From NCBI RefSeq assembly GCF_014200575.1, contig NZ_JACHBZ010000001.1:124001-188000 (forward strand): a stretch of 64,000 bases of DNA. The letters are read 5' to 3'. Made by a program: the position numbers and the translations under genes. Source of the DNA: Mucilaginibacter saanensis. GTDB taxonomy: Bacteria; Bacteroidota; Bacteroidia; Sphingobacteriales; Sphingobacteriaceae. The first letter of the stretch is position 1. Every line of letters begins with the position of its first letter. The notes beneath the pieces are model-generated. The model made no database searches and was not told the origin of the DNA. It saw only the letters and a program-made list of their open reading frames with translations. Below are positions 32,987 through 46,433 of this stretch, in pieces.

Positions 32987-34453
32987 TTATTTAATACTGG
33001 TTAATCTGTTTTCGAGCAGTATAAAACTATCTTTTCCCGACTCGCAAACCGGGCAGCTATAGGTATCCAGGCTTTCAAAATCGGTACCGGCAGCAATTCC
33101 GTTAACAATGTCGCCATAGGTTTTATCATAAATACTGAAACAGCTTTTGCACTGATAAATATAATCCACCTCCTTATCGGCTTGCTTATCATCCTTCTTG
33201 TCCGCAGTCTGGCTCAGTAAAACGTTATCGTCAATTAAAATGCCATAAAAATGGTTGCAAAGCTCCATAATGCACGGGCCCAGATCGGCCCGCTTTACCT
33301 TGGTTTTATAGCTAACATAATTGCGCGAGTTTGGATTAAAATCATGGGTGTGCAGTATATCAAACACATCCTGTTTATGCTTTTTAATAATGATGGAACC
33401 GGGCAGCCCGGTTTTGGGCTGCATTTTTATGGCAAAGCAAAGGCGGTAAGTGCGCAGGTCATATTCCTCAAACTCCCGTACCAGCTCCTGTTTCAATTGC
33501 AGGCTTTCGCTGTTCAGGTTTTCCAGCTGCCAGTTTAGCTCGTTGGAGGCGTGCCTTACATTTACCCGGTATTTGTTTAGTATAATGCCCCATTCTTTAC
33601 GGTCGGGCTCATTGATGCCTTTGATCAACAGCGATTTCCAGGGGGTAGTATATAGCTGGCCAACCCTGTTTTTGAGGCAGATGGTGCAAATATCCTTCAT
33701 GAACGTTATGGGGAAAAGCTCATTACGGCGATAAATGCCCAGCCAGTATTTATTATTCAGGTACCGGTTAAAACCCTCGTAGTAGGGGAGCTGAAAATCG
33801 GGTAGTTTTAATGCCTCGGTTATGGGTTGATTTACAAGATCACTCCCGGCGGTAACCAATTCATGAAATTTGAGATGATCTGTTTGCTGCTGATCATAAA
33901 ACAGTTCTTTATGATCAATGATTACCTTTTCGGCTATTTTGCTGATTAGCGGGATATCATCAGAGTAAATTAAAGACGGCCAGCAGTATATATCGCCGGT
34001 TTTTGGGAAACGTACATACAGGTACCAATAGTTGCTTACATCAGAAGTAATGAAATTGAAGTTGCCGCTAAAAAATGGGACAAAGGTCTGTTGCCTGTCA
34101 ACCAGGTTAATTTTTAAACGGGGCTTAAAGTTAAACAGGTCAAAAATATCTTTATAAACACCTTCCTTTATCCAGCTTTCTGTATTAAATATGGCATCGG
34201 TAACGTATGAGCTGATGATGTTCGGAAACTCCTCCTCATTTATTTCATAGCTGATCTCGGCACTGAGCATGTCCGTTTCCATATCTTCCAGCTGGCTGGC
34301 TTCAATATGAAAAAACAGCTGCTGGCGGTTACCGATCTGGATATTTGTGGCGCCTGCATTTTCTGCAATCAGCAAAAGCTCATATAAGTCACCGGCAGAT
34401 ACTACGCCTCCCGGTAAATTTATCTTGATACAATAGGTTGCTTTTTCGTCCAT
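32987..34453 (-). CDS. Sirohaem-reductase-like protein with C-terminal rubredoxin domain
   Basis: A 488-residue protein. The N-terminus (LPGGVVSAGDLYELLLIAENA, then GNRQQLFFHI) matches the ferredoxin-like half-domain of nitrite/sulfite reductases. The C-terminal 55 residues are a rubredoxin domain: CKSC, GTDFESL and CPVC supply the four iron ligands. In between I find no C-x5-C plus C-x3-C set, so a 4Fe-4S/sirohaem centre like that of NirB appears to be absent. It probably carries electrons for the nitrate reductase encoded 9 bp upstream. Direct nitrite reduction is unlikely. It is an operon member. Confidence 0.8.
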   Translation of the reverse strand: MDEKATYCIKINLPGGVVSAGDLYELLLIAENAGATNIQIGNRQQLFFHIEASQLEDMETDMLSAEISYEINEEEFPNIISSYVTDAIFNTESWIKEGVYKDIFDLFNFKPRLKINLVDRQQTFVPFFSGNFNFITSDVSNYWYLYVRFPKTGDIYCWPSLIYSDDIPLISKIAEKVIIDHKELFYDQQQTDHLKFHELVTAGSDLVNQPITEALKLPDFQLPYYEGFNRYLNNKYWLGIYRRNELFPITFMKDICTICLKNRVGQLYTTPWKSLLIKGINEPDRKEWGIILNKYRVNVRHASNELNWQLENLNSESLQLKQELVREFEEYDLRTYRLCFAIKMQPKTGLPGSIIIKKHKQDVFDILHTHDFNPNSRNYVSYKTKVKRADLGPCIMELCNHFYGILIDDNVLLSQTADKKDDKQADKEVDYIYQCKSCFSIYDKTYGDIVNGIAAGTDFESLDTYSCPVCESGKDSFILLENRLTSIK

Positions 34454-34462
34454 GGCTATCTT

Positions 34463-37400
34463 TTATTTTGCTAAAACCTCAGCTTTAAGCATTTCTTCCA
34501 GTATACGTTTTACTTCGGGCCGGCATGATCCGCAGCCGGTACCCGCCCCGGTAGTTGTACACAGGTCTTTAAGGTTATTACAGCCGGATGCTATCTTGTT
34601 CTGGATGTTTTCGCTGCCTACATTGTTGCAGCTGCATACTAACTTCCCGAGTACAGGTTCGGCCGTGTTACCGCTGCGTAGCAACTGGATGCGTTTTTCG
34701 CTCAGTTCGGTTTTATTGGCTATCAACTCCCTGAACTCCTGAAATTCGCCTTTGTCGCCTATCAGTATCGTGCCTACTAAGCGGTCTTCGTGAATGATAC
34801 ACTTTTTATAGTAGCGCTTAGCTTTGTCAATAAACACAATTTCCTCGTAGTTGATATTGTCCGGGCACTCTGACAGGCCAATGCTGCACAAATCAAAACC
34901 ATGAATTTTAATGATGTTCATGAACAGCGTGCCTTTGTAATAGCTGGCAATATCGCCGTTCATGTATTTGGCCATTACCTCGGCCTGTTGCTCTGCTGCT
35001 GCAGTAATGCCATACATGGTGCCCTGAAACTCGGCTATTTCGCCTATGGCGTATATGTCAGGATCGCTGGTTTGCATGCGCTCGTTTACAATAACACCAC
35101 GTTTGCACTCCAGGCCGCAATCCCGGGCAATTTCAAGGTTGGGGGTAGTGCCTATAGCCAGGATCATGGCGTCGCAATCAATTTTGTTGCCGCTTTTTAA
35201 ACCCACACCGGTTAATTTCGACCGCCCATAAAACAACTGCACTTCATCGTCATAATAAATATCACAACCTTGATCAACCATTTCTTCGGCAAGCAGCTGG
35301 CTGCCTAATACATCAAGCTGGCGGTTTAAAAAGCGCGATACCCGCTGTACAATGGTTATCCTCATGCCAATTTCGCGCAGGGATGCTGCCATTTCCAGCC
35401 CCAATAAACCACCGCCAACAATTACCACGTGGCCGCCCTGCGGTACATGTTTTATAAAGCCGTCGGCATCGTTACGGCTGCGCATGGTGAATATACCCGG
35501 TAATGATGGCACGTTTTTAGGCACCGATGCCCGGCTGCCGGTGGCCAGCAGCAACACGTCATAAGGCGTTTTTACACCACGCGAATCAGTAACAGTTTTG
35601 TTGGTGCGGTCAACTTTTTCAATACTTACGCCCCGCAGCATCTTTATTTTATAGGCAGGTTCTTCCGAGTCCTTCATTTTTACCAGCTGTTCCCATGACT
35701 GCTCGCCGCTAATGTAATCCGGCAGCATAACGCGGTTGTAAAAAGGGTGGTTCTCCTTGCTGAATATCGTGATCTCATCATCGGGGTTCAGCTCCCGGTA
35801 TGATTTTACAAAGCCATAGGCTCCCGCGCCGGCGCCCACTACCACAATACGCTGAAAAGGCTTTTTATATTTTTGCAGATGAACGGCACAAAATTTAAAG
35901 TCGGGCTCTTTTGATATTGGGTCAACCAGTGTGCTGGTCAGGTTGTTGGCGCGGTTAAGGTCGTTGTTTAAAATTTTGCCCCAGTGCATGGGCAAAAACA
36001 CCACACCCTGTTTTATTTGAGCGGTAATTTTGGCCTGTACCCTTACTTCGCCACGCCTGGAGGTAATGGTGGTAATATCGCCTTCGTTTAAGCTCAGGCT
36101 GGCGGCATCATTGGGGTGAATCTCTAAAAATGCCTGTTTATAGTGCTGATTAAGCTTATTTACCTTGCTTGTTTTACTCATGGTATGCCACTGATCGCGG
36201 ATGCGGCCGGTGGTGAGGATAAAAGGGAAATCCTCATCGGGCATTTCGCTGGTCAGGGTATCCGGAACTGCGCTGATTATGGCCTTTTTTGACGGGGTGT
36301 AAAACTGCTTATCAATAAATAAACGGGGTGTGCCTTTTGGCGGGCTTTTCTTTTTATAGGGCCATTGTACCGTTTTTTGTTCCTTTAAAACCGCATAGCT
36401 CAAGCCGCTGATATCAATATTGGTTTTAGCGGTAAGCTTTACGTGCTCGTCATAAATGGCTGCGGCATTTTCAAAATCAAAACCTTTATAACCCATTTTA
36501 CGGGCAAACCGGCAAATGATCTCTGAGTCGGGGAGGGCCTCGCCCGGCGGATCAAGGATCTTGTTCAGGTAGCTGATGCGCCGCTCAGAGTTGGTCATGG
36601 TGCCTTCCTTTTCTGCCCAGGCTGCTGCGGGTAGTATAACGTCGGCATAAGCCAGGGTTTCGGGCTTATTGCTGATTTCCTGTACCACTACAAACTTTGC
36701 TTTTTGCAGAGCCTTTTCGGCCAGGCGTACGTTGGGCAGGCTGGTTAAGGGGTTGGTACACATGATCCAGATGGCCTTTAGGCGGCCATCATCCAATGCC
36801 TCAAACATTTCGGTAGCCGTTAGGCCCGGTTTGGCTTGTATGGTAGTGCCACCCCAGAATTTTTGTACCTCTTCCCGGTGCAGCGGATTACCCATATTGC
36901 GATGGGCCGGGAGTATGTTGGACAATCCACCAACTTCCCTGCCGCCCATAGCATTGGGCTGCCCTGTTAATGATAACGGGCCAGAGCCGGGTTTACCAAT
37001 ATGCCCGGTGATCAGATTAAGGTTGATGAGGCTCAGGTTTTTGTTTACCCCGATGACGCTTTGGTTAAGACCCATAGTCCACATAGTGATAAAGCCCTTA
37101 GCCTCGCCTATATATTTTGCCGCAAGGCGGATGTCGTTTTCGTTTAATCCACAAATTTGAGCGGCTTCGGTCAGTGTTCTTTGAAAAACAATGGTGCTGT
37201 ATTGCTCAAAACCTTCGGCATGGTTATTAATAAAGTCGATGTCTATATCGCCGTTTTCAATAAGCAGGCGACCTATGGCATGGTTGAGCGTAATATCGGT
37301 ACCCGGGTTAATCTGCAAATGCAGATCGGCAATGGCGCAGGTATCCGTAACCCGCGGGTCAACCACAATAATTTTTGTGTCGGGATTGGCGGCTTTGTGC

Positions 37401-37999
37401 GCTTCAACCCTGCGCCATAAAATAGGATGGCACCAGGCAGGGTTGCCGCCCATAATATAAAAGCAATCGGCCAGTTCAATATCGTCATAACAAAGCGGAA
37501 CGCTATCCTCACCAAGCGATATTTTATAGGCGGCAACGGCGCTGCTCATGCACAGGCGCGAGTTGGTATCAATGTTATTGCTGCCAATAAATCCCTTGAT
37601 CAGTTTGTTAACTACATAATACTCTTCGGTAAGGCATTGTCCTGATGCGTAAAAGGCTACAGAATCTGGTCCGTATTTATCAATAAAGGTTTTAAAAACA
37701 GCAGCAGTACGGTCAAGTGCCTCATCCCAGCTTACCCGTTGCAGGGGCATACTTTTGTTATAACGCATCTGCGGGTAATAGAGCCGGTCGCTTTTGTCAT
37801 TGGCGGTATGGTGCAGGTTCATTCCCTTGCTGCAAAGCATACCTTTATTAACCGGGTGCTCTTTATCGCCCTGGAGCGTAATTGTTCCGTTTTTTTCCTT
37901 GTTCACCACAATACCGCAACCCACCCCGCAATAACAGCAGGTGGAGGTTACGGCATTGGCGGTTAACCTGTTTTTAGATGTTGATACTTTTACGCTCAT
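34463..37999 (-). CDS. nasC: Assimilatory nitrate reductase fused to an FAD/NAD(P)H reductase and BFD domain
   Basis: A 1178-residue fusion protein. Residues 1-700 are a molybdopterin nitrate reductase: 4Fe-4S ligands C21, C24, C28 and C56, the molybdenum-type Cys150 in NSRLCMSS, and the dinucleotide-binding C-terminal domain (LTTGRIRDQWHTMSKT). Residues about 715-1060 are a NirB-like FAD/NAD(P)H oxidoreductase (VVVGAGAGAYGFV and VVIVGGGLLGLEMAASL). Residues 1120-1160 are a BFD-type 2Fe-2S domain with C1122, C1124, C1156 and C1159. The protein can therefore pass electrons from NAD(P)H to nitrate in one chain. It is fourth from last in the operon, 5 bp after the transporter gene. The symbol follows function only. 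Confidence 0.9.
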   Translation of the reverse strand: MSVKVSTSKNRLTANAVTSTCCYCGVGCGIVVNKEKNGTITLQGDKEHPVNKGMLCSKGMNLHHTANDKSDRLYYPQMRYNKSMPLQRVSWDEALDRTAAVFKTFIDKYGPDSVAFYASGQCLTEEYYVVNKLIKGFIGSNNIDTNSRLCMSSAVAAYKISLGEDSVPLCYDDIELADCFYIMGGNPAWCHPILWRRVEAHKAANPDTKIIVVDPRVTDTCAIADLHLQINPGTDITLNHAIGRLLIENGDIDIDFINNHAEGFEQYSTIVFQRTLTEAAQICGLNENDIRLAAKYIGEAKGFITMWTMGLNQSVIGVNKNLSLINLNLITGHIGKPGSGPLSLTGQPNAMGGREVGGLSNILPAHRNMGNPLHREEVQKFWGGTTIQAKPGLTATEMFEALDDGRLKAIWIMCTNPLTSLPNVRLAEKALQKAKFVVVQEISNKPETLAYADVILPAAAWAEKEGTMTNSERRISYLNKILDPPGEALPDSEIICRFARKMGYKGFDFENAAAIYDEHVKLTAKTNIDISGLSYAVLKEQKTVQWPYKKKSPPKGTPRLFIDKQFYTPSKKAIISAVPDTLTSEMPDEDFPFILTTGRIRDQWHTMSKTSKVNKLNQHYKQAFLEIHPNDAASLSLNEGDITTITSRRGEVRVQAKITAQIKQGVVFLPMHWGKILNNDLNRANNLTSTLVDPISKEPDFKFCAVHLQKYKKPFQRIVVVGAGAGAYGFVKSYRELNPDDEITIFSKENHPFYNRVMLPDYISGEQSWEQLVKMKDSEEPAYKIKMLRGVSIEKVDRTNKTVTDSRGVKTPYDVLLLATGSRASVPKNVPSLPGIFTMRSRNDADGFIKHVPQGGHVVIVGGGLLGLEMAASLREIGMRITIVQRVSRFLNRQLDVLGSQLLAEEMVDQGCDIYYDDEVQLFYGRSKLTGVGLKSGNKIDCDAMILAIGTTPNLEIARDCGLECKRGVIVNERMQTSDPDIYAIGEIAEFQGTMYGITAAAEQQAEVMAKYMNGDIASYYKGTLFMNIIKIHGFDLCSIGLSECPDNINYEEIVFIDKAKRYYKKCIIHEDRLVGTILIGDKGEFQEFRELIANKTELSEKRIQLLRSGNTAEPVLGKLVCSCNNVGSENIQNKIASGCNNLKDLCTTTGAGTGCGSCRPEVKRILEEMLKAEVLAK

Positions 38000-39328: not shown

Positions 39329-40870
39329 TTATTTGTTTAGAAATTCGGGCTTGATATTGATTTGCAGGTAAGCCCATACCGGTTTTAAATTGGCAGTGCC
39401 GGGCGTAATATTTTTAGCATACTCCATACTGCGGGTTGCCGCCATGTATGACAAGCCAAGATCAACCGCGGTAAACTTATTGAGCTTATAGCCTGTGGTA
39501 AGGTCAAACTCTGTACCCAGGTATTTGCTTACCGGCTCGCCGCCGGTATCTTTCTGGTTTTGGGCCAGGAAGAAATAATGATTGGCCAGCTCGGTTGTGA
39601 AGCGGTTGTTGGCCGATGTGTATTTTATTTTTAAATAAGGGTTGCTTAAGCCGCCTGTTGGCGAGCCGCTTACTGCATAAAAATAATCCATGTATCCCCA
39701 AAACTTATGGGGCGTACCATATAGCGGATCAAAACGATGATCGGTTTTTGAAGCAGAAAAAGCATCATTGCCTGACAGGTAATCCCAGCCGGCGGCATAA
39801 CTTAACTGGTTGGGTTTGAATGTTACCGAGGTAGTTATAGTATATGCGCTTAATGATGAGCCATCGCGGTCATGGCCTCCCTGGTAGTAAAAGCCGCCGG
39901 TTAAGGCCAGCTGGTTTTTATCGCCAAAAACAGGGTTTATTAATAAACCGGTGGTATAGCGGGTATTGATGCCCGTTTGGTTGAACCGTTTGCCATAAAC
40001 GTACCCAACATCGGTGCCCGAAGTATTTTTAACCGAGTCAAGTATGTATTTACTAAACTGATCGGCCAGGAACAAGCCTGTTATTTTTGTTTTGTTGAAT
40101 TTTTTGGCGGCGTACAAATACTCTAAAGCCTTATAGTTTTGAGTTGCCGCGTTGCTGCCCGGGGCGTTTAAATAAACCGGATTGCCATTTTTTGCACTTA
40201 TACCCGCAGCATTAACTAGGGGGATCAGGTTTGCGGGGGTATTTACGAGGTTGCCTTTACTGTCCTTTACAGTAGCGGGTATATTGGCAGGCGTATAATA
40301 GGTGCCATTATAATTAATAGCATCGGAGTTTTGGTTAAATGCTGCACCCAGGTCAAGCTGCCATCCGCTTTGGAGCATCTTGAATACAATGGCATCGTGG
40401 CGGCGGCCTTGCTGTGTCCAGTCAAGGTTACCAAGCAGGCGTTCGTCGTCATAAACTAACTCCTGGCGGCCTATCTTAACGGCAAAGTAATCAAGGGGTG
40501 ATGATTTAAAGGAAGTATCTTTTTTGTTCGACAGGATAATCTCGGCCCAGGCTTCATGTACTTCTAATTTGTTGCCGTCGGCAATGGTGGTGGTGGATGC
40601 ATCTTGTCCCCAAAGCCTTACGTCCTGAATGGTGGTGTGAAAAATGAGCTTGCTTGATTTGTAATCAAGTGTTAAACGCGTTCGTTGTGAAATGAACGCC
40701 GCATCCTTGTAACCCGTGGTTTGCAAGGTGCCGTAACCATCCCTTAGCTCGCCCCTTGTTCTTAACTGGCCAGAAAAAGAGAGTTGTGCATTTACGTTTA
40801 AGCTGGAAAAACATATAATAATAAATGCAATAGCAGGAATAGTGTATTGGTTTAATACATTTTTGTACAT
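39329..40870 (-). CDS. Alginate-export-type outer-membrane porin, first gene of the nitrate operon
   Basis: A 513-residue protein with a signal peptide (AIAFIIICFSSLNVNAQ). The barrel starts LSFSGQLRTRGELRDGYG and contains RLTLDYKSSKLIFHTTIQDV and YFAVKIGRQELVYDDERLLG, which is typical of the alginate-export/AlgE-like porin family. It ends in YLQINIKPEF. As the first gene before nitrate transporter and reductase it probably lets nitrate or nitrite through the outer membrane. This substrate comes from context only. Its start codon follows a structured leader. Confidence 0.8.
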   Translation of the reverse strand: MYKNVLNQYTIPAIAFIIICFSSLNVNAQLSFSGQLRTRGELRDGYGTLQTTGYKDAAFISQRTRLTLDYKSSKLIFHTTIQDVRLWGQDASTTTIADGNKLEVHEAWAEIILSNKKDTSFKSSPLDYFAVKIGRQELVYDDERLLGNLDWTQQGRRHDAIVFKMLQSGWQLDLGAAFNQNSDAINYNGTYYTPANIPATVKDSKGNLVNTPANLIPLVNAAGISAKNGNPVYLNAPGSNAATQNYKALEYLYAAKKFNKTKITGLFLADQFSKYILDSVKNTSGTDVGYVYGKRFNQTGINTRYTTGLLINPVFGDKNQLALTGGFYYQGGHDRDGSSLSAYTITTSVTFKPNQLSYAAGWDYLSGNDAFSASKTDHRFDPLYGTPHKFWGYMDYFYAVSGSPTGGLSNPYLKIKYTSANNRFTTELANHYFFLAQNQKDTGGEPVSKYLGTEFDLTTGYKLNKFTAVDLGLSYMAATRSMEYAKNITPGTANLKPVWAYLQINIKPEFLNK

Positions 40871-40889
40871 TTGAGATAGTTTTTTATTT

Positions 40890-40946
40890 GTTAAAGCAAT
40901 GAAAACTGTTTAACCCTGTCTGGGAATGCGACCTCCCGGCAGGGCT
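40890..40946 (-). ncRNA. Structured 5' leader element of the nitrate operon
   Basis: On the minus strand AGCCCTG (40946-40940) pairs with CAGGGTT (40918-40912), enclosing 21 nt that contain AGGTCGCA (40934-40927). Directly after the stem comes AAACAGTTTT, two bases, then TTGCTTTAAC (40911-40890), and the porin start codon follows 20 bp later. The same order and sizes occur before nirB with another stem sequence (45057-45110). It looks like a cis-acting RNA; the ligand or partner is unknown. Confidence 0.6.
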
Positions 40947-41079
40947 TTTTTATGTTTCGTAATTAGTTATTTGCATCCATAGGCGTTTATTTTTTAAAGT
41001 TTCTTTATTAATGTATTTTTATTGTTATAAATATATCCAAATTGGGGTTGTTTATCAATAATTGCATGAGTATTTTCCA

Positions 41080-41105
41080 ATTTTTATGATTTAAATCATA
41101 AAAAT
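41080..41105. promoter_or_regulatory. 26-bp perfect palindrome, candidate Crp/Fnr operator
   Basis: The arms ATTTTTATGATTT and AAATCATAAAAAT are perfectly complementary. The centre reads TGAT-TTAA-ATCA, which matches the core of the FNR box TTGAT-N4-ATCAA. It lies between the nitrate operon and the Crp/Fnr gene at 41374. Confidence 0.6.
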
Positions 41106-41373
41106 CTTTTTTATTGTCAAATTATTAAATTTTAACTCCTTAAAAACTGATTAAATAGCATTTTTATAATGTAAAAAATAAACTTATGTGAATTTTAACT
41201 GATTGTATTTTACTAATTGCCTATTTTTTATGTTTAAATTACTTTATTTTTTGAGTTTTTTGATTTTGTGTCGTAAATAATGACATTTATCATGTAATAA
41301 TTGCTGATGATTTGTTGTATTTATTAATTAATATTGCAAATACTGTTATCTGTATCGAATAAAATTGCTGTTA

Positions 41374-42072
41374 ATGAAAAAAAGTCAAAATATTTGTGAT
41401 TTAAAGAGCTGTTTTTTGTGTAAAAACACTTTAAAAGAATGGCATCCGGCAATTTCTGCCAATAAAGTAAATTTAAAAGTAAAAAAGGGTGAGGTTATTT
41501 TTAAGGAGGGTGATCCGGTAACTGGTATTTACTTTGTTAACTCCGGAAGTGTAAAAGTTTATAAAAAATGGGATAAGGATAAAGAGCTTATTGTGCGTTT
41601 TGCCAGGGAGGGGTCGCTTTTTGGTCATAGAGGTTTGGGGGTAGGTGGTACTTATCCAATATCGGCGGCGGCGCTGGAGCCTACCATTGTTTGTTATGTT
41701 GATGTGGCTTTTTTTGAAGCCTCTATAAAAGTTAATTCTGATTTTACCTATCAGTTATTGATGTTTTTAACAGAAGAGCTAAAGCAATCTGAAAGAAAAA
41801 TGCGCAACCTGGCACACATGTCTGTTAAGGGGCGTGTTGCCGAAGCGCTGATATCGTTGCAAAACCAGTTTGGTGTAACTGCTGATGGTTTTATTAATAT
41901 TGATCTGAGCCGGCAGGATCTGTCATCATACGCCGGGGCTACTTACGAAACTGTTTTCCGGATGATGAATGAGCTGGTAAGTGAAAAGCTGATCAGTTTA
42001 TCCGGAAAAAGTATTCGTCTTGTAAACCGCGAGGAGCTGCTGAAGCTGGCTCAGGATATTGTTTTTCTGTAA
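41374..42072 (+). CDS. Crp/Fnr-family regulator with conserved cysteines (paralogue 1)
   Basis: A 232-residue regulator. Cysteines C8, C13 and C16 precede the cyclic-nucleotide-type sensor barrel (KKGEVIFKEGDPVTGIYFVNSG), and a fourth, C107, lies in it. A dimerisation helix (FLTEELKQSERKMRNLAHM) leads to a winged helix whose recognition helix has YETVFRMM. Glu and Arg at the FNR-specific positions fit binding to TGA half-sites. Four such cysteines suggest an iron-sulfur cluster for oxygen or NO sensing. It is divergent from the nitrate operon, with the palindrome at 41080 between them. ATG 41374 is chosen over TTG 41365. Confidence 0.87.
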   Translation: MKKSQNICDLKSCFLCKNTLKEWHPAISANKVNLKVKKGEVIFKEGDPVTGIYFVNSGSVKVYKKWDKDKELIVRFAREGSLFGHRGLGVGGTYPISAAALEPTIVCYVDVAFFEASIKVNSDFTYQLLMFLTEELKQSERKMRNLAHMSVKGRVAEALISLQNQFGVTADGFINIDLSRQDLSSYAGATYETVFRMMNELVSEKLISLSGKSIRLVNREELLKLAQDIVFL

Positions 42073-42080
42073 ATCTCCCA

Positions 42081-42431
42081 TTAAACTATACCTATATATA
42101 CTTTACCATCGGTAACTTTTACTGGGTAGGTTTTTATTTGGTAGTCATCTCCATCAAGGCATTCTCCGCTTAACAGCGAGAATGCTTTTTTGTGAAACGG
42201 GCAGGCAACTTTTGGGGTGCAATCGTCGCCGGTGCTGCCAATCATTCCGCGCGAAAGTACCATTTGTTGTTTATGCGGGCAGAGGTTCTGGGTTGCATAC
42301 CATTCACCGCGTCTTGAAAAATTGTATAGCGCTATTTGTTCGTCGCCATGTTTTACACAGGCGCCGCCGTTTTCGGGTACATCATCTGTATAACAAGCTA
42401 ATACCCATTCAATGTCTGCTACTGTTTCCAT
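42081..42431 (-). CDS. nirD: Nitrite reductase small subunit (Rieske type)
   Basis: A 116-residue Rieske-like protein. The 2Fe-2S ligands are CPHK and CPFHKK, spaced as in assimilatory NirD and Rieske ferredoxins, and all four are present. It forms NAD(P)H-dependent nitrite reductase with NirB, encoded upstream on the same strand. The gap between them is 118 bp and holds REP-like copy E. Its end lies 8 bp from the convergent Crp/Fnr gene. Confidence 0.92.
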   Translation of the reverse strand: METVADIEWVLACYTDDVPENGGACVKHGDEQIALYNFSRRGEWYATQNLCPHKQQMVLSRGMIGSTGDDCTPKVACPFHKKAFSLLSGECLDGDDYQIKTYPVKVTDGKVYIGIV

Positions 42432-42465
42432 GTTTATATATTTTAAGAGAATGATGTTTAAAATT

Positions 42466-42526
42466 TGTTATTCTGAACGGAGTGGGCTTAGTGGTTAACA
42501 GATGCTTCACTGCGTTCAGCATGACA
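42466..42526. repeat. REP-like element, copy E, between nirB and nirD
   Basis: TGTTATTCTGAACGGAGTG at one end and CACTGCGTTCAGCATGACA at the other are complementary. The core GATGCTTCACTGCG matches copy B. It separates two genes of one enzyme complex. Confidence 0.65.
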
Positions 42527-42549
42527 AGAGGTTTTTATTGTTGATTATA

Positions 42550-45039
42550 TTACCATTTGGCTTTTACCTGCTCGCGCATGGTTTCAAATTTCACCGAAGG
42601 GTCTTTTTCGGCAGGGGCGTTTACAAAATGGGCAAAGCGTTTGCGCAAGTCTGGATTTTCTACCACTTCTTTCCACTCGCAATGGTAGGTATCAACAAGT
42701 TGCTGCATTTCCTCGTCCAGTTTTTCGGCAATGCCCAGGCTGTCATTAATAATTACGTTTTTAAGGTAGCTCATGCCGCCCTCCATTTTATTTAACCAGG
42801 TTGCGGTGCGGGTTAAAGGATCGGCAGTTTTAATGTAAAACATCAGGAATCTGTCAATGTATCTGATGCAGGTTGCATTGTCAATATCGTTGGCCAGCAG
42901 TTGGGCATGTTGTGGTTTTGAGCCGCCGTTACCGCATATATACAGGTTCCAGCCTTTTTCGGTAGCAATAATTCCAAAATCCTTTGATTGTGCTTCGGCG
43001 CATTCGCGGACGCAGCCGCTTACACCGCCTTTTAATTTATGCGGCGAGCGGATCCCTTTGTACCTGTCTTCTATCTCAATAGCAAATGATACGCTGTCAT
43101 GTAGCCCAAAGCGGCACCAGGTGCTGCCCACGCAGCTTTTAACGGTACGCAGGGCTTTACCATAGGCGTGTCCGCTCTCAAAACCCGCTTCTATTAATTC
43201 TTCCCAAATTAGGGGCAGGTCATTTACGTGGGCCCCAAACAGGTCAATACGCTGGCCGCCGGTTATTTTGGTATATAAGCCATACTTTTTAGCTACCTGG
43301 CCTATCACAATCAGTTTATCAGGGGTTATTTCGCCGCCCGGTATGCGCGGTACAACGGAGTAGGTGCCGCCTTTTTGTATGTTGGCGAGGTAGCGGTCGT
43401 TACTGTCCTGTATGGTGTCTTGTTTAACAATTACGTCGTTCCATAAGCTTGATAGTATGCTGGCTACTGCAGGTTTGCAAACTTCGCAGCCATCGCCTTT
43501 GCCAAAGTGGTCAAGCACCAGATCGTAGTTTTTAACCTTGTTTATTTTTACCAGGTCAAACAGTTCTTGTCTGGAGTAGTCAAAATGCTCGCATATTACA
43601 TTTTTAACATACTGGCCGTTGGCTTTCATGGTGCCGGCAATTAAATCCTTAACCAGTGGTACGCAACCTCCGCAGCCTGTGCCGGCCTTGGTGCATTTCT
43701 TTATCTCGTCAATAGTGCATGCGCCCTCATTAACTGCCGAGCAGATACTTGATTTGCTAACCGCTTCGCATGAGCAGATCAGTGCATCATCGGGAAGGTT
43801 CATTACGCCGGCGCCTTCGCTGGCTTCGCCTCCTCTTGAACCTAATATCAGGTCCTCGGGGTTGGGTGGTAAAACTATTTTATTGTTAACGGTTTGTAGT
43901 AATATATTGTAGGCGTCAGCATCGCCAATTAAAATACCGCCCAGCAGGTATTTGCCATCGTTGCTGATGTTGATGCGTTTATACACGCCTTTGTGGGTGT
44001 CTTCAAATACAATAGTGCGGCAATCTGGTTCGGTGATAAAGGCATCTCCAAAGCTGGCTACATCAACACCTATTAGTTTAAGCTTGGTGCTCATGTCGTA
44101 ACCGTAAAAGCCTTTTTCGTTGCCTGAGAGGTAGGAGGCCACAATGTCGGCCATTTCATAACCCGGTGCTACCAGTCCGTATATCATACCTTCGTAAAGG
44201 GCGCACTCGCCAATGGCGAAGATGGATTCATCGCTGGTTTGCATTTTTTCATTCACGATGATGCCCCCGCGGGTTCCGGTATGCAGGCCCGCCAGTTTTG
44301 CCAGTTCATCGCGCGGACGGATACCTGCCGATATAACCATCATGTCAATAGCCAGGCTGGTGTCGTCATTAAAGCGTAGGGCTTCAATTTTGTGTTCGCC
44401 AACAAAGGCTGCCGTGTTTTTATTAAGGTGGATATTTAATCCGAGGCTTTTTAATTTAGACAGGAGCATGCCGCTGCCTGCTGAGTCAATTTGCCGTGGC
44501 ATCAGGCGGGGCGCAAATTCAATTACGTGGGTTTCCTGTATGCCCAGGTCAATGAGTGCTTTAGCTGCTTCCAGGCCTAAAAGTCCGCCGCCCATTACGG
44601 CGCCCACTTTGGCATTGGCTGCGTATGTTTTGATCAGGTCCAGGTCATCAATGGTGCGATAAACAAATACGCCGTCTTTTTCAACTCCCGGAATATCAGG
44701 CACAAAAGCCGATGAGCCGGTGGCTAATACCAGGTAGTCGTACTTTAAGGTAACTCCTTTTAAAGAGTGGATTGTTTTTTCGGTGCGGTTTATTTCCTGA
44801 ACGGGATCATTAAGATGTAACTTTATGCCGTTGTCAGCGTACCATGAATAAGTGGAGAGTGATAGGTCACTTGCTGATTTGCCGTTAAAATATTCGCTAA
44901 GGTGAACCCGGTCATAAGCTATGCGTGGTTCTTCGCCAAAAACAATAATATTGAAATGTGATGATCTGGCTATTAGTTTTTCACAAAACTTATATCCTAC
45001 CATTCCATTGCCAACAACGATGATAGTTGGTTGAAACAT
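42550..45039 (-). CDS. nirB: NAD(P)H-dependent nitrite reductase, large subunit
   Basis: An 829-residue enzyme that reduces nitrite to ammonium in the cytoplasm. The order of domains is FAD-binding (IIVVGNGMVGYKFCEKL), NAD(P)-binding (VGAVMGGGLLGLEAAKAL), a BFD 2Fe-2S domain (LICSCEAV and GTGCGGC), a second BFD-like region (GDGCEVCKP), the ferredoxin-like half-domain and the sirohaem/4Fe-4S domain. The cluster ligands are in CVGSTWC and CVRECA. All are intact. A leader element like that of the nitrate operon precedes the start codon. Confidence 0.95.
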   Translation of the reverse strand: MFQPTIIVVGNGMVGYKFCEKLIARSSHFNIIVFGEEPRIAYDRVHLSEYFNGKSASDLSLSTYSWYADNGIKLHLNDPVQEINRTEKTIHSLKGVTLKYDYLVLATGSSAFVPDIPGVEKDGVFVYRTIDDLDLIKTYAANAKVGAVMGGGLLGLEAAKALIDLGIQETHVIEFAPRLMPRQIDSAGSGMLLSKLKSLGLNIHLNKNTAAFVGEHKIEALRFNDDTSLAIDMMVISAGIRPRDELAKLAGLHTGTRGGIIVNEKMQTSDESIFAIGECALYEGMIYGLVAPGYEMADIVASYLSGNEKGFYGYDMSTKLKLIGVDVASFGDAFITEPDCRTIVFEDTHKGVYKRINISNDGKYLLGGILIGDADAYNILLQTVNNKIVLPPNPEDLILGSRGGEASEGAGVMNLPDDALICSCEAVSKSSICSAVNEGACTIDEIKKCTKAGTGCGGCVPLVKDLIAGTMKANGQYVKNVICEHFDYSRQELFDLVKINKVKNYDLVLDHFGKGDGCEVCKPAVASILSSLWNDVIVKQDTIQDSNDRYLANIQKGGTYSVVPRIPGGEITPDKLIVIGQVAKKYGLYTKITGGQRIDLFGAHVNDLPLIWEELIEAGFESGHAYGKALRTVKSCVGSTWCRFGLHDSVSFAIEIEDRYKGIRSPHKLKGGVSGCVRECAEAQSKDFGIIATEKGWNLYICGNGGSKPQHAQLLANDIDNATCIRYIDRFLMFYIKTADPLTRTATWLNKMEGGMSYLKNVIINDSLGIAEKLDEEMQQLVDTYHCEWKEVVENPDLRKRFAHFVNAPAEKDPSVKFETMREQVKAKW

Positions 45040-45056
45040 ATTGATTTTTTTTAAAT

Positions 45057-45110
45057 GTTAAAGCAAAAACTGTTTTATAATGCATTTTAGTTGCGACCTT
45101 CAAGCATTAT
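45057..45110 (-). ncRNA. Structured 5' leader element of nirB
   Basis: On the minus strand ATAATGC (45110-45104) pairs with GCATTAT (45083-45077), enclosing 20 nt with AGGTCGCA (45099-45092). Right after the stem comes AAAACAGTTTT, then TTGCTTTAAC, as in the nitrate operon leader. Six of seven stem positions differ from that leader, yet all seven pairs are kept. Confidence 0.6.
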
Positions 45111-45179
45111 GATAACAATATTAACTAATTAAATCAGTATTTCAATTTTTTAGTCGAATAAAAATTTAATTTTTGGTGA

Positions 45180-45253
45180 TTTTTATGATATTGGTAATAT
45201 TTTAATGTTTGATAGTGTAATTTTTTAGACTTTTTTATGATATATGTAATTTA
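45180..45253. promoter_or_regulatory. Two Crp/Fnr-like half-palindromes between nirB and cobA
   Basis: TTTTTATGATATTGGTAAT (from 45180) and TTTTTATGATATATGTAAT (from 45232) share TTTTTATGAT with the 26-bp palindrome at 41080 and have a GTAA second half. They probably bind the same regulator and control nirB, cobA or both. Confidence 0.45.
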
Positions 45254-45317
45254 TAAGTGCTAAAAATTGTCTATAATTGATGGTGAATGAAGATTTTTAA
45301 GTTTTTTTATTTAATAT

Positions 45318-46046
45318 ATGGAATATAAGGCCCCATTTCCCGAATTATTTGTTTTAGGTGCCGGTCCCGGTGATCCAGAATTGATAACTGTTAAGGGATA
45401 TAAGATTTTGCAGCAGGCTGATGTGATATTGTATGATAACCTGGCCAATAAAGCACTGTTAGATATTGCAAAAGCCGATTGCGAAAAAATTTACGTGGGT
45501 AAGCATCCTTATGGCAGTTATACGCCACAGGAAACCATTCATGAAATGATTAAACACTACGCCTTTACTAAAGGTGTTGTGGTGAGGTTAAAAGGCGGCG
45601 ACCCTTTTATATTCGGCCGTGGGTTTGAAGAAATTATATATGCCCGTGAACAAGGCATTAAAACTCATTTTATACCAGGCATCAGCAGTATGCAGGCTTC
45701 GGGCTTTTTGGATATTCCCTTAACCCACCGGGCCATGAGCGAGGGGGTTTGGATAATAACCGGCACAAAAAAGGATGGTACTTTATCTGCCGATTTAAAA
45801 CTGGCTATGCAAAGTAATGCCACGGTGGTAGTATACATGGGAATGAAACAAATTGACTCCATTGCCGAAACTTATATGTTGCAGGGAAAAGGAGCAACGC
45901 CGGCGGCAATTATTCAACATGCATCGTTACCGCAACAAAAAGTAGTAAAGGGGTTGGTTAAAGATCTGCGCCAAATGGCCGATAGTAACCAAATGGCCCA
46001 CCCGGCCCTTATTATTATTGGCGAGGTAGTGGGTTTAGCTAAATAA
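45318..46046 (+). CDS. cobA: Uroporphyrinogen-III C-methyltransferase
   Basis: A 242-residue enzyme that uses SAM to make precorrin-2, the first committed step to sirohaem. The SAM-binding and family motifs LGAGPGDPELITVKG, VRLKGGDPFIFGRG and GISSMQASG are present. It supplies the sirohaem for NirB, which is divergently transcribed from the same spacer. No precorrin-2 dehydrogenase/ferrochelatase domain is fused, so that activity must be encoded elsewhere. Confidence 0.95.
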   Translation: MEYKAPFPELFVLGAGPGDPELITVKGYKILQQADVILYDNLANKALLDIAKADCEKIYVGKHPYGSYTPQETIHEMIKHYAFTKGVVVRLKGGDPFIFGRGFEEIIYAREQGIKTHFIPGISSMQASGFLDIPLTHRAMSEGVWIITGTKKDGTLSADLKLAMQSNATVVVYMGMKQIDSIAETYMLQGKGATPAAIIQHASLPQQKVVKGLVKDLRQMADSNQMAHPALIIIGEVVGLAK

Positions 46047-46070: not shown

Positions 46071-46433
46071 ATGAAAATCAGGATAAAAGGGAACTCCCTG
46101 CGTTACCGCCTTACCAAAACTGATGTGGAGCGTTTTTCGAGCGAGGGTTATTTGGAAGAGCAAACAATTTTTGGCGCTGGCTTATTAACCTATGCCTTAC
46201 AGGTTTATGCTTCAGATCAGCTTACGGCCAATTTTGAAAATAATAAAATCACTCTTTTTATGCCCGAGGCCATGGCTGATAGCTGGGCCGCAACAGATAA
46301 GGTAGGTTTTGAGGAAAGTACAGGGCCGCTTTATTTGCTGATTGAAAAAGATTTTAAGTGTTTGGATAACGTAGCCGAAGATCAAAGCGACAATTATCCA
46401 AACCCTTTGTTAAATAAGCAGCTTGTTGGGTAG
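46071..46433 (+). CDS. Conserved hypothetical protein downstream of cobA (DUF7009-like)
   Basis: A 120-residue soluble protein starting MKIRIKGNSLRYRLTKTDVE. It is beta-rich, with GLLTYALQVYAS and KITLFMPEAMADSWA, and ends in an acidic segment. It recalls small proteins of Bacteroidota nitrite clusters that I associate with DUF7009, but I am not sure of that name. It starts 24 bp after cobA and is surely co-transcribed. A link to nitrite reduction or sirohaem use is inferred from position. Confidence 0.7.
   Translation: MKIRIKGNSLRYRLTKTDVERFSSEGYLEEQTIFGAGLLTYALQVYASDQLTANFENNKITLFMPEAMADSWAATDKVGFEESTGPLYLLIEKDFKCLDNVAEDQSDNYPNPLLNKQLVG

What the first reader, a model, noticed from the sequence alone, without database searches (positions are those of the whole stretch)
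40890..45110. Shared leader element with covarying stem before the nitrate operon and nirB
On the minus strand both leaders contain a 7-bp stem (AGCCCTG/CAGGGTT and ATAATGC/GCATTAT), a 20-21-nt loop with AGGTCGCA at the same place, and directly after the stem AAACAGTTTT then TTGCTTTAAC, 20 or fewer bases before the start codon. Six of seven stem positions differ, yet pairing holds at every position. That pattern is typical of a conserved RNA structure. A nitrate-, nitrite- or cofactor-responsive leader or a protein-bound RNA would fit. I know no described motif with these features.
Basis: partly seen in the sequence, partly recalled or inferred. Interest (0 to 1): 0.8.

Follow-up and report, generated by a model that had tools for sequence, protein, structure and literature searches.

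The report
Leader RNA hairpin of nitrate genes
Soil bacteria related to Mucilaginibacter carry an undescribed RNA hairpin just before the start codons of their nitrate- and nitrite-using genes; its stem changes freely while staying paired and its loop and tail stay fixed, which points to a hidden RNA switch for nitrogen use.

Summary
On the minus strand of a Mucilaginibacter-type genome, the nitrate operon leader (40888-40953) and the nirB leader (45055-45118) share a hairpin with loop GGUCGC(A) and a tail GCUUUAACA. The model finds no third copy in that genome. Of the genus leaders examined, 62 of 63 nirB and 46 of 48 nitrate-porin leaders carry it. Loop-to-tail (30-38 nt) and tail-to-AUG (13-21 nt, one exception) spacings are near-constant, while distance to the predicted promoter differs: 17-20 nt for nirB, 79-96 nt for the nitrate operon, where one was found. 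nirB stems pair with their own partner far better than with swapped partners (0 of 10000 permutations); disjoint sister pairs agree more weakly (8 for, 1 against, 7 ties). Diverged copies with other stems precede the nitrate porin in Desertivirga-, Paradesertivirga- and Pedobacter-like genera. No Rfam family matches. Best reading: a cis-acting mRNA leader, probably bound by a protein that controls translation start; the factor and signal are unknown. A riboswitch is the main rival. ANTAR-type antitermination, a terminator and a simple two-site small RNA are not supported.

The parts
40888..40953 (-). Leader RNA element of the nitrate operon (whole covariance-model match)
   Evidence: R1 match 52.4 bits; R2 65.1 bits; this copy is in both models' alignments
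40940..40946 (-). 5' arm AGCCCTG of the nar hairpin (pairs with 40912-40918)
   Evidence: sequence; fold
40912..40918 (-). 3' arm CAGGGTT
   Evidence: sequence
40927..40933 (-). Conserved loop GGTCGCA
   Evidence: GGTCGCA in 46 of 46 nar elements
40889..40897 (-). Conserved tail GCTTTAACA
   Evidence: 46 of 46 nar elements
45055..45118 (-). Leader RNA element of nirB (whole covariance-model match)
   Evidence: R1 match 42.4 bits; this copy is in the model's alignment
45104..45110 (-). 5' arm ATAATGC of the nirB hairpin
   Evidence: sequence
45077..45083 (-). 3' arm GCATTAT
   Evidence: sequence
45092..45098 (-). Conserved loop GGTCGCA
   Evidence: GGTCG in 62 of 62 (by selection), next C in 61 of 62 nirB elements
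45056..45064 (-). Conserved tail GCTTTAACA
   Evidence: 61 of 62 exact in nirB elements
45116..45145 (-). Predicted Bacteroidota-type promoter of nirB: TTG-N19-TAATATTG, just 5' of the hairpin (promoter type recalled)
   Evidence: overlaps promoter-like sites, which are not above chance as a set
41028..41058 (-). Predicted promoter of the nitrate operon: TTG-N20-TATATTTA
   Evidence: overlaps a promoter-like site
41086..41099 (-). Palindrome ATGATTTAAATCAT, likely Crp/Fnr-type operator
   Evidence: sequence; function inferred
40963..40980 (-). Short upstream ORF MDANN-stop in the nar leader; its ATG position is conserved
42550..45039 (-). nirB, assimilatory nitrite reductase large subunit
   Evidence: TIGR02374, NF011565
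42081..42431 (-). nirD
   Evidence: TIGR02378
41365..42072 (+). Crp/Fnr-family regulator between nirD and the nitrate operon
   Evidence: PF00027, PF13545, PF00325
39329..40870 (-). Porin-like first gene of the nitrate operon (Alginate_exp)
   Evidence: PF13372
38005..39300 (-). NarK-type nitrate/nitrite transporter (TIGR00886, just under its cut-off)
34463..37999 (-). Molybdopterin oxidoreductase (probable nitrate reductase) fused to a NirB-like NAD(P)H reductase part
   Evidence: no equivalog cut-off reached
32987..34453 (-). Rubredoxin plus NIR_SIR ferredoxin-like half-domain protein

Best explanation
It is a structured cis-regulatory mRNA leader of the nitrate-assimilation genes of Mucilaginibacter and related Sphingobacteriaceae. 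The stem serves only to present a fixed loop, GGUCGC(A); a fixed single-stranded tail, GCUUUAACA, begins 30-38 nt after the loop motif begins and ends 13-21 nt before the start codon. The most likely mechanism is that one trans-acting factor, probably an RNA-binding protein answering to nitrate, nitrite or nitrogen status, reads loop and tail together and so sets translation initiation of nirB and of the first gene of the nitrate operon, while the adjacent Crp/Fnr-family regulator controls transcription. Shown here: a conserved, covarying RNA element, nearly always beside these genes and anchored to the start codon. Inferred: translation as the regulated step, the protein factor, the signal, and the role of the Crp-family protein.
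For: Presence in 62 of 63 nirB and 46 of 48 porin leaders examined. Arm-swap test on 41 non-redundant nirB hairpins: own 20.7, swapped 14.8, 0 of 10000 permutations reach it. Pair counts on 58 sequences: 72.3% of cells paired against 56.1 shuffled, covariation score 0.451 against 0.220 (0 of 500), slid registers at most 0.176; similar on 36 sequences with other genera. Disjoint sister pairs on a nirB tree: 8 own above cross, 1 below, 7 ties, one-sided p 0.02. Loop and tail almost invariant. Loop-tail and tail-AUG spacings near constant, while the predicted promoter lies 17-20 nt before GGTCG in nirB (57 of 62) but 79-96 nt in nar (41 of 46), so the element follows the start codon and not the promoter. 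Stem strength varies widely (-5 to -25 kcal/mol), which suits a scaffold better than a stability-set switch. In other genera quite different stems keep pairing around a GUCG loop.
Against: No binding protein or ligand was identified and there are no expression data. nar hairpins alone show no covariation beyond swaps (z 1.3) because they are nearly invariant. RNAalifold predicted no structure on the MAFFT alignment, so the structure was set by hand. The number of pairs with any double change does not exceed shuffles (253 of 500). The window's nirB leader does not fold better than shuffles (z -0.29). Three genus leaders lack the element (L131, L144, L145). One Desertivirga-like nirB leader (L288) has the tail but no GUCG loop. 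A copy beside a non-nitrogen gene (L169) is unexplained. Seven of 16 sister pairs are ties.
Confidence: 0.5

Rival explanations
1. Riboswitch: hairpin loop and tail fold into one pocket that binds a small molecule (nitrate, nitrite, glutamine, a cofactor) and changes access to the start codon.
For: Loop and tail are both invariant and unpaired and lie at near-constant spacing; in porin leaders of other genera both differ together.
Against: No conserved alternative pairing: the tail's longest complement upstream is at chance in nirB (5.0 against 5.15 shuffled); in nar it is 5.5 against 4.9, and 23 of 46 have 6 or more complementary bases, so it is not general. Few paired elements for an aptamer; stem length and strength vary widely.
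Confidence: 0.22
2. mRNA stability or processing element: the hairpin shields the 5' end (nirB) or is a processing site, and loop and tail bind an RNase or a protector.
For: The nirB hairpin is predicted to sit at the extreme 5' end of the transcript.
Against: The nar hairpin is predicted tens of nt inside its transcript; invariant loop and tail are not needed for simple shielding.
Confidence: 0.13
3. Target of a trans-acting small RNA that pairs with the loop and the tail.
For: Two fixed single-stranded segments with a flexible link.
Against: Exact two-site complements, summed over 37 genomes, number 44 (control 65) in one order and 42 (control 59) in the other. Some matches recur in several genomes (for example GTTAAAGCNCCNGGNTTNGGCGACC), and look like coding sequence, but the window's genome, which has both elements, has no match in that order and 2 in the other. 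Only exact, closely spaced sites were tested.
Confidence: 0.08
4. DNA-level operator or promoter part rather than RNA.
For: Some nirB arms are palindromic (AAATGCATTT).
Against: Arms change while keeping pairing; the element keeps its place to the start codon and not to the predicted promoter.
Confidence: 0.04
5. Transcription attenuation or antitermination, as in ANTAR systems.
For: NasR-type systems use leader hairpins of nitrate genes (passages of PMC3369931).
Against: No terminator-like site at either element; no second hexaloop hairpin; ANTAR family PF03861 over its cut-off in 0 of 31 genomes, with one weaker match in G017 (whose 14 control genomes were also silent).
Confidence: 0.03

Closest known systems
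ANTAR substrate leader RNAs (NasR/NasT, EutV)
   Same: Hairpin with conserved loop in leaders of nitrate-assimilation operons in some bacteria.
   Different: Those are two hairpins with hexanucleotide loops (A at 1, G at 4) next to a terminator (passages of PMC3369931); here one hairpin, another loop, a single-stranded tail, no terminator, no ANTAR match over cut-off.
preQ1-I-like small riboswitches (recalled)
   Same: One hairpin plus a conserved downstream single strand near the start codon.
   Different: No Rfam match; loop and tail sequences differ; the link between hairpin and tail is longer; no ligand known.
CsrA-type or phage coat-type translational operators (recalled)
   Same: A variable stem presents a fixed loop close to the start codon.
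   Different: Loop motif differs, plus a second fixed single-stranded motif; no partner identified.
Candidate RNA motifs of Weinberg et al. 2010 (PMC2864571)
   Same: Same kind of evidence: covarying RNA found by comparison. Its Table 1 names a GUCCY-hairpin in Bacteroidetes and Proteobacteria, doubtful as RNA and without an Rfam number.
   Different: 'Nitrite' and 'nitrate' occur 0 times in its main text, and GUCCY only in that table row, so its structure could not be compared; by name GUCCY does not fit GUCGC. The 2017 motif list was not held.

Membership tests
Rfam 15 RNA families | Covariance-model score at or above gathering threshold | tested here: not met
   0 hits in the whole window; at E up to 10 in 40000-45500 none overlaps either element
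ANTAR substrate RNA | Two adjacent hairpins with hexanucleotide loops, A1 and G4 | tested here: not met
   Single hairpin, loop GGUCGC(A); definition
ANTAR substrate RNA | Overlapping intrinsic terminator | tested here: not met
   No terminator-like site at the elements
ANTAR substrate RNA | ANTAR-domain protein in the genome | tested here: inconclusive
   0 of 31 genomes over cut-off, one weaker match in G017; the 14 control genomes gave none either
Riboswitch | Specific ligand binding by the RNA alone | not testable with these tools
   needs probing
Riboswitch | Conserved alternative structure (expression platform) | tested here: inconclusive
   Only tail and loop complements in the leader were tested: at chance in nirB; 6 or more bases in 23 of 46 nar
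Covarying cis-regulatory leader RNA (general kind) | Covariation and consistent gene context across species | tested here: met

The most novel reading that the evidence does not exclude
Probability: 0.35. Interest if true: 0.8.

Novelty: new variant of a known kind. Interest (0 to 1): 0.62.

Why it matters
RNA-level control of nitrate assimilation is known from ANTAR systems in other phyla. Here a different leader RNA, absent from Rfam and not found in the papers searched, marks both transcription units of the pathway in a group of soil bacteria. It gives a ready handle (loop and tail as bait) to find an RNA-binding regulator or a ligand in a phylum where, to my knowledge, few such systems are understood.

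Tried and rejected
Rfam scan at gathering and permissive thresholds: nothing at the elements. RNAalifold on A2 predicted no pairs, so the structure was set by hand from the arms and then counted. Loop-to-tail pseudoknot: only two possible pairs that never vary, so untestable (by eye). A second hairpin GUUAAA/UUUAAC: 6 or more complementary bases in 23 of 46 nar leaders, at chance in nirB. Two-site small RNA: fewer matches than the control. A peptide read through the nirB hairpin: the frame is not kept (by eye). DUF7009 as partner: beside nirB/cobA in 25 of 26 loci L203-L228 and in none of L229-L282 within the fetched range, but element-bearing loci such as L231 and L232 lack it there, so it is not a general partner. 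Weak model hits judged chance: G008 C42 inside a gene and L326-L329. L169 (G106) has a good element well 5' of a hotdog-fold-like gene (named by eye) and stays unexplained.

The G206 case, which first looked like a move of the element to narK, is weaker than it seemed: 19 nt after its tail lies the ATG of a 39-codon remnant that begins like the porin, and narK starts 162 nt after the tail. It may be a relic.

Strict coupling of loop and tail is not borne out: two Desertivirga-like nirB leaders (L287, L289) have AGUCGC in the loop but the usual tail.

Rows dropped: three NirB matches without 5' end (G249, G250, G292) and two porin matches without 5' end (G250, G258) gave no leader. L131, L144 and L145 lack the motif and are counted as misses. 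The loop and tail frequencies are over the 108 leaders picked for GGTCG and GCTT(T/A)AAC. L287 was left out of A4 after a trial alignment, and L288 was never aligned.
Full report
What is there. The two leaders were read on the minus strand. Both have a 7-bp stem, a 20-21-nt loop with AGGTCGCA, and after the stem a block ending in TGCTTTAACA; GCTTTAAC ends 17 nt (nirB) or 19 nt (nar) before ATG. Six of seven stem positions differ and all pair. The genes are nirB and nirD, and an operon of a porin-like protein, a NarK-type transporter, a probable nitrate reductase fused to a NirB-like part, a rubredoxin protein and a DUF4202 protein. Between them lies a Crp-family gene on the other strand.

Spread in the genus. 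The nirB protein was found in 66 of 120 genus genomes and the porin in 50 of 120. I had a leader for 63 and 48 of these; 62 of 63 and 46 of 48 have GGTCG followed within 60 nt by GCTT(T/A)AAC. The misses are L131 (a 70% identical NirB), L144 and L145. L144 is the porin of G206, which lies elsewhere; in that genome an element remains between nirD and narK, 19 nt before a 39-codon remnant that begins like the porin and 162 nt before narK. In the window's own genome the models found only the two copies in the window. The named scan puts the closest relatives in Mucilaginibacter.

Is it RNA? Arms pair with their own partner better than with others: 41 non-redundant nirB hairpins score 20.7 against 14.8 for swapped arms, and none of 10000 permutations reaches that; the 15 nar hairpins alone give z 1.3, since they hardly vary. 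On 58 aligned sequences 72.3% of cells pair (56.1 shuffled), covariation score 0.451 (0.220 shuffled, 0 of 500), slid registers 0.061-0.176; the count of pairs with any double change does not exceed shuffles. With other genera added the result stands (67.1% against 53.9; 0.429 against 0.240). To allow for relatedness I built a nirB tree of 42 distinct sequences and took 16 sister pairs on disjoint paths: own arms beat crossed arms in 8, lose in 1, tie in 7 (one-sided p 0.02). Against: RNAalifold gave no structure, and single-sequence folding is better than shuffles for nar (z -2.93) but not for the window's nirB leader (z -0.29) nor clearly for G034's nar leader (z -0.85).

What is fixed. Over the 108 elements, which were picked for GGTCG and GCTT(T/A)AAC, the tail is GCTTTAACA in 107 and the base after GGTCG is C in 107. 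From the start of GGTCG to the start of the tail is 30-36 nt (nirB) and 33-38 nt (nar); from GCTTTAAC to ATG 13-18 nt (nirB, one case of 3) and 17-21 nt (nar). A Bacteroidota-type -7 box (TAnnATTG; type recalled) lies 17-20 nt before GGTCG in 57 of 62 nirB leaders as the script picked it, in 33 of them with TTG 19-22 nt further up; in the other five the script picked another box. In nar, TATATTTA or TATGTTTA lies 79-96 nt before GGTCG in 41 of 46. So the element keeps its distance to the start codon while the promoter moves, which argues for a role after transcription has begun, most simply at translation start. The terminator scan shows no terminator-like site at the elements.

Beyond the genus. 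With R1 the family sample gave matches at E up to 0.1 in 26 of 201 genomes, several of them weak, and the phylum sample at 0.01 in 2 of 395, both of the same genus (strict filters). Thirteen NirB leaders from other families lack it (L196, first misread inside its gene, was read again). Diverged copies appeared before the nitrate porin of genus g30, Desertivirga-like by an identical leader (L167, L171, L199), and before nirB in two of its three genomes (L287, L289, with quite different stems and AGUCGC in the loop), while the third (L288) has the tail without a GUCG loop. Porin leaders of Paradesertivirga (L237, and L234) and of Pedobacter puniceum and P. glucosidilyticus (L232, L250) also have it. 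R2, built with L232, L237 and L250 included, gave 50 of 331 family genomes at E up to 0.02, in 6 of 25 genera. In porin leaders loop and tail differ together: GGUCGCA/GCUUUAACA, AGUCGCA/GCUCACACA, GGUCGAA/GCUUUUCACA, AGUCGAA/GCGUUCACA. That is four types only, and the g30 nirB leaders (AGUCGC with GCUUUAACA) break the rule.

Mechanism. A stem free in sequence, length and strength that presents a fixed loop, plus a fixed unpaired tail close to the start codon, is what one expects of a protein-bound leader. It would also fit a small riboswitch. No general alternative pairing was seen. The factor and signal are unknown.

Known systems. ANTAR leader RNAs, the known RNA-level nitrate control, have two hexaloop hairpins and a terminator (passages of PMC3369931), not met here; PF03861 was over cut-off in 0 of 31 genomes, with silent controls. 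Nothing matched Rfam. Paper searches listed no description of such a leader; of the papers I saw passages of PMC3369931 and PMC2864571 and only listings of the rest, and most subscription journals and the 2017 motif list are not held.

Noticed in passing
window 40963-40980 (-), and nar leaders L073-L153: 45 of 46 nar leaders with the element have an ATG 39-56 nt before GGTCG, mostly in one alignment column (often GCCTATG), opening an ORF that is mostly 3-10 codons and stops before the hairpin; the peptide sequence is not conserved. In nirB leaders the predicted promoter leaves no room for one.
   Followed up: partly
L255, L256, L260, L262, L263, L267, L275, L277-L279 (Chitinophagaceae-type loci), before the porin: A GC-rich hairpin stands before the nitrate porin, in some right after what looks like the nirD stop codon, with a six-base loop, mostly UGGCAG or GUGCAA, and in some a second A/U-rich hairpin. 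It may be a diverged or analogous form of the same leader.
   Followed up: partly
nirB leaders L256, L262, L263, L271, L275, L276, L278, L279; porin leaders L243, L247, L248: A shared motif resembling CGATTGCYTGCC stands before nirB or the porin in Chitinophagaceae-type loci; unexplained.
   Followed up: no
window 46071-46433 (+): A DUF7009 gene lies beside cobA and nirB in 25 of 26 loci L203-L228 and in none of L229-L282 within the fetched range.
   Followed up: partly
L169 (G106, near C14:247526): A good copy of the element, with a plausible stem, lies about 140 nt before a hotdog-fold-like gene (named by eye) and on another contig than that genome's nitrate genes; possibly a relic.
   Followed up: partly
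L149, L152 (nar leaders): A second GCTTTAACA stands upstream of the hairpin as well as downstream.
   Followed up: no
window 41086-41099 (-): Palindrome ATGATTTAAATCAT upstream of the predicted nar promoter, a probable Crp/Fnr-type site; a loose pattern found similar sites in 27 of 46 nar and 22 of 62 nirB leaders at varying distances, without a chance control.
   Followed up: partly
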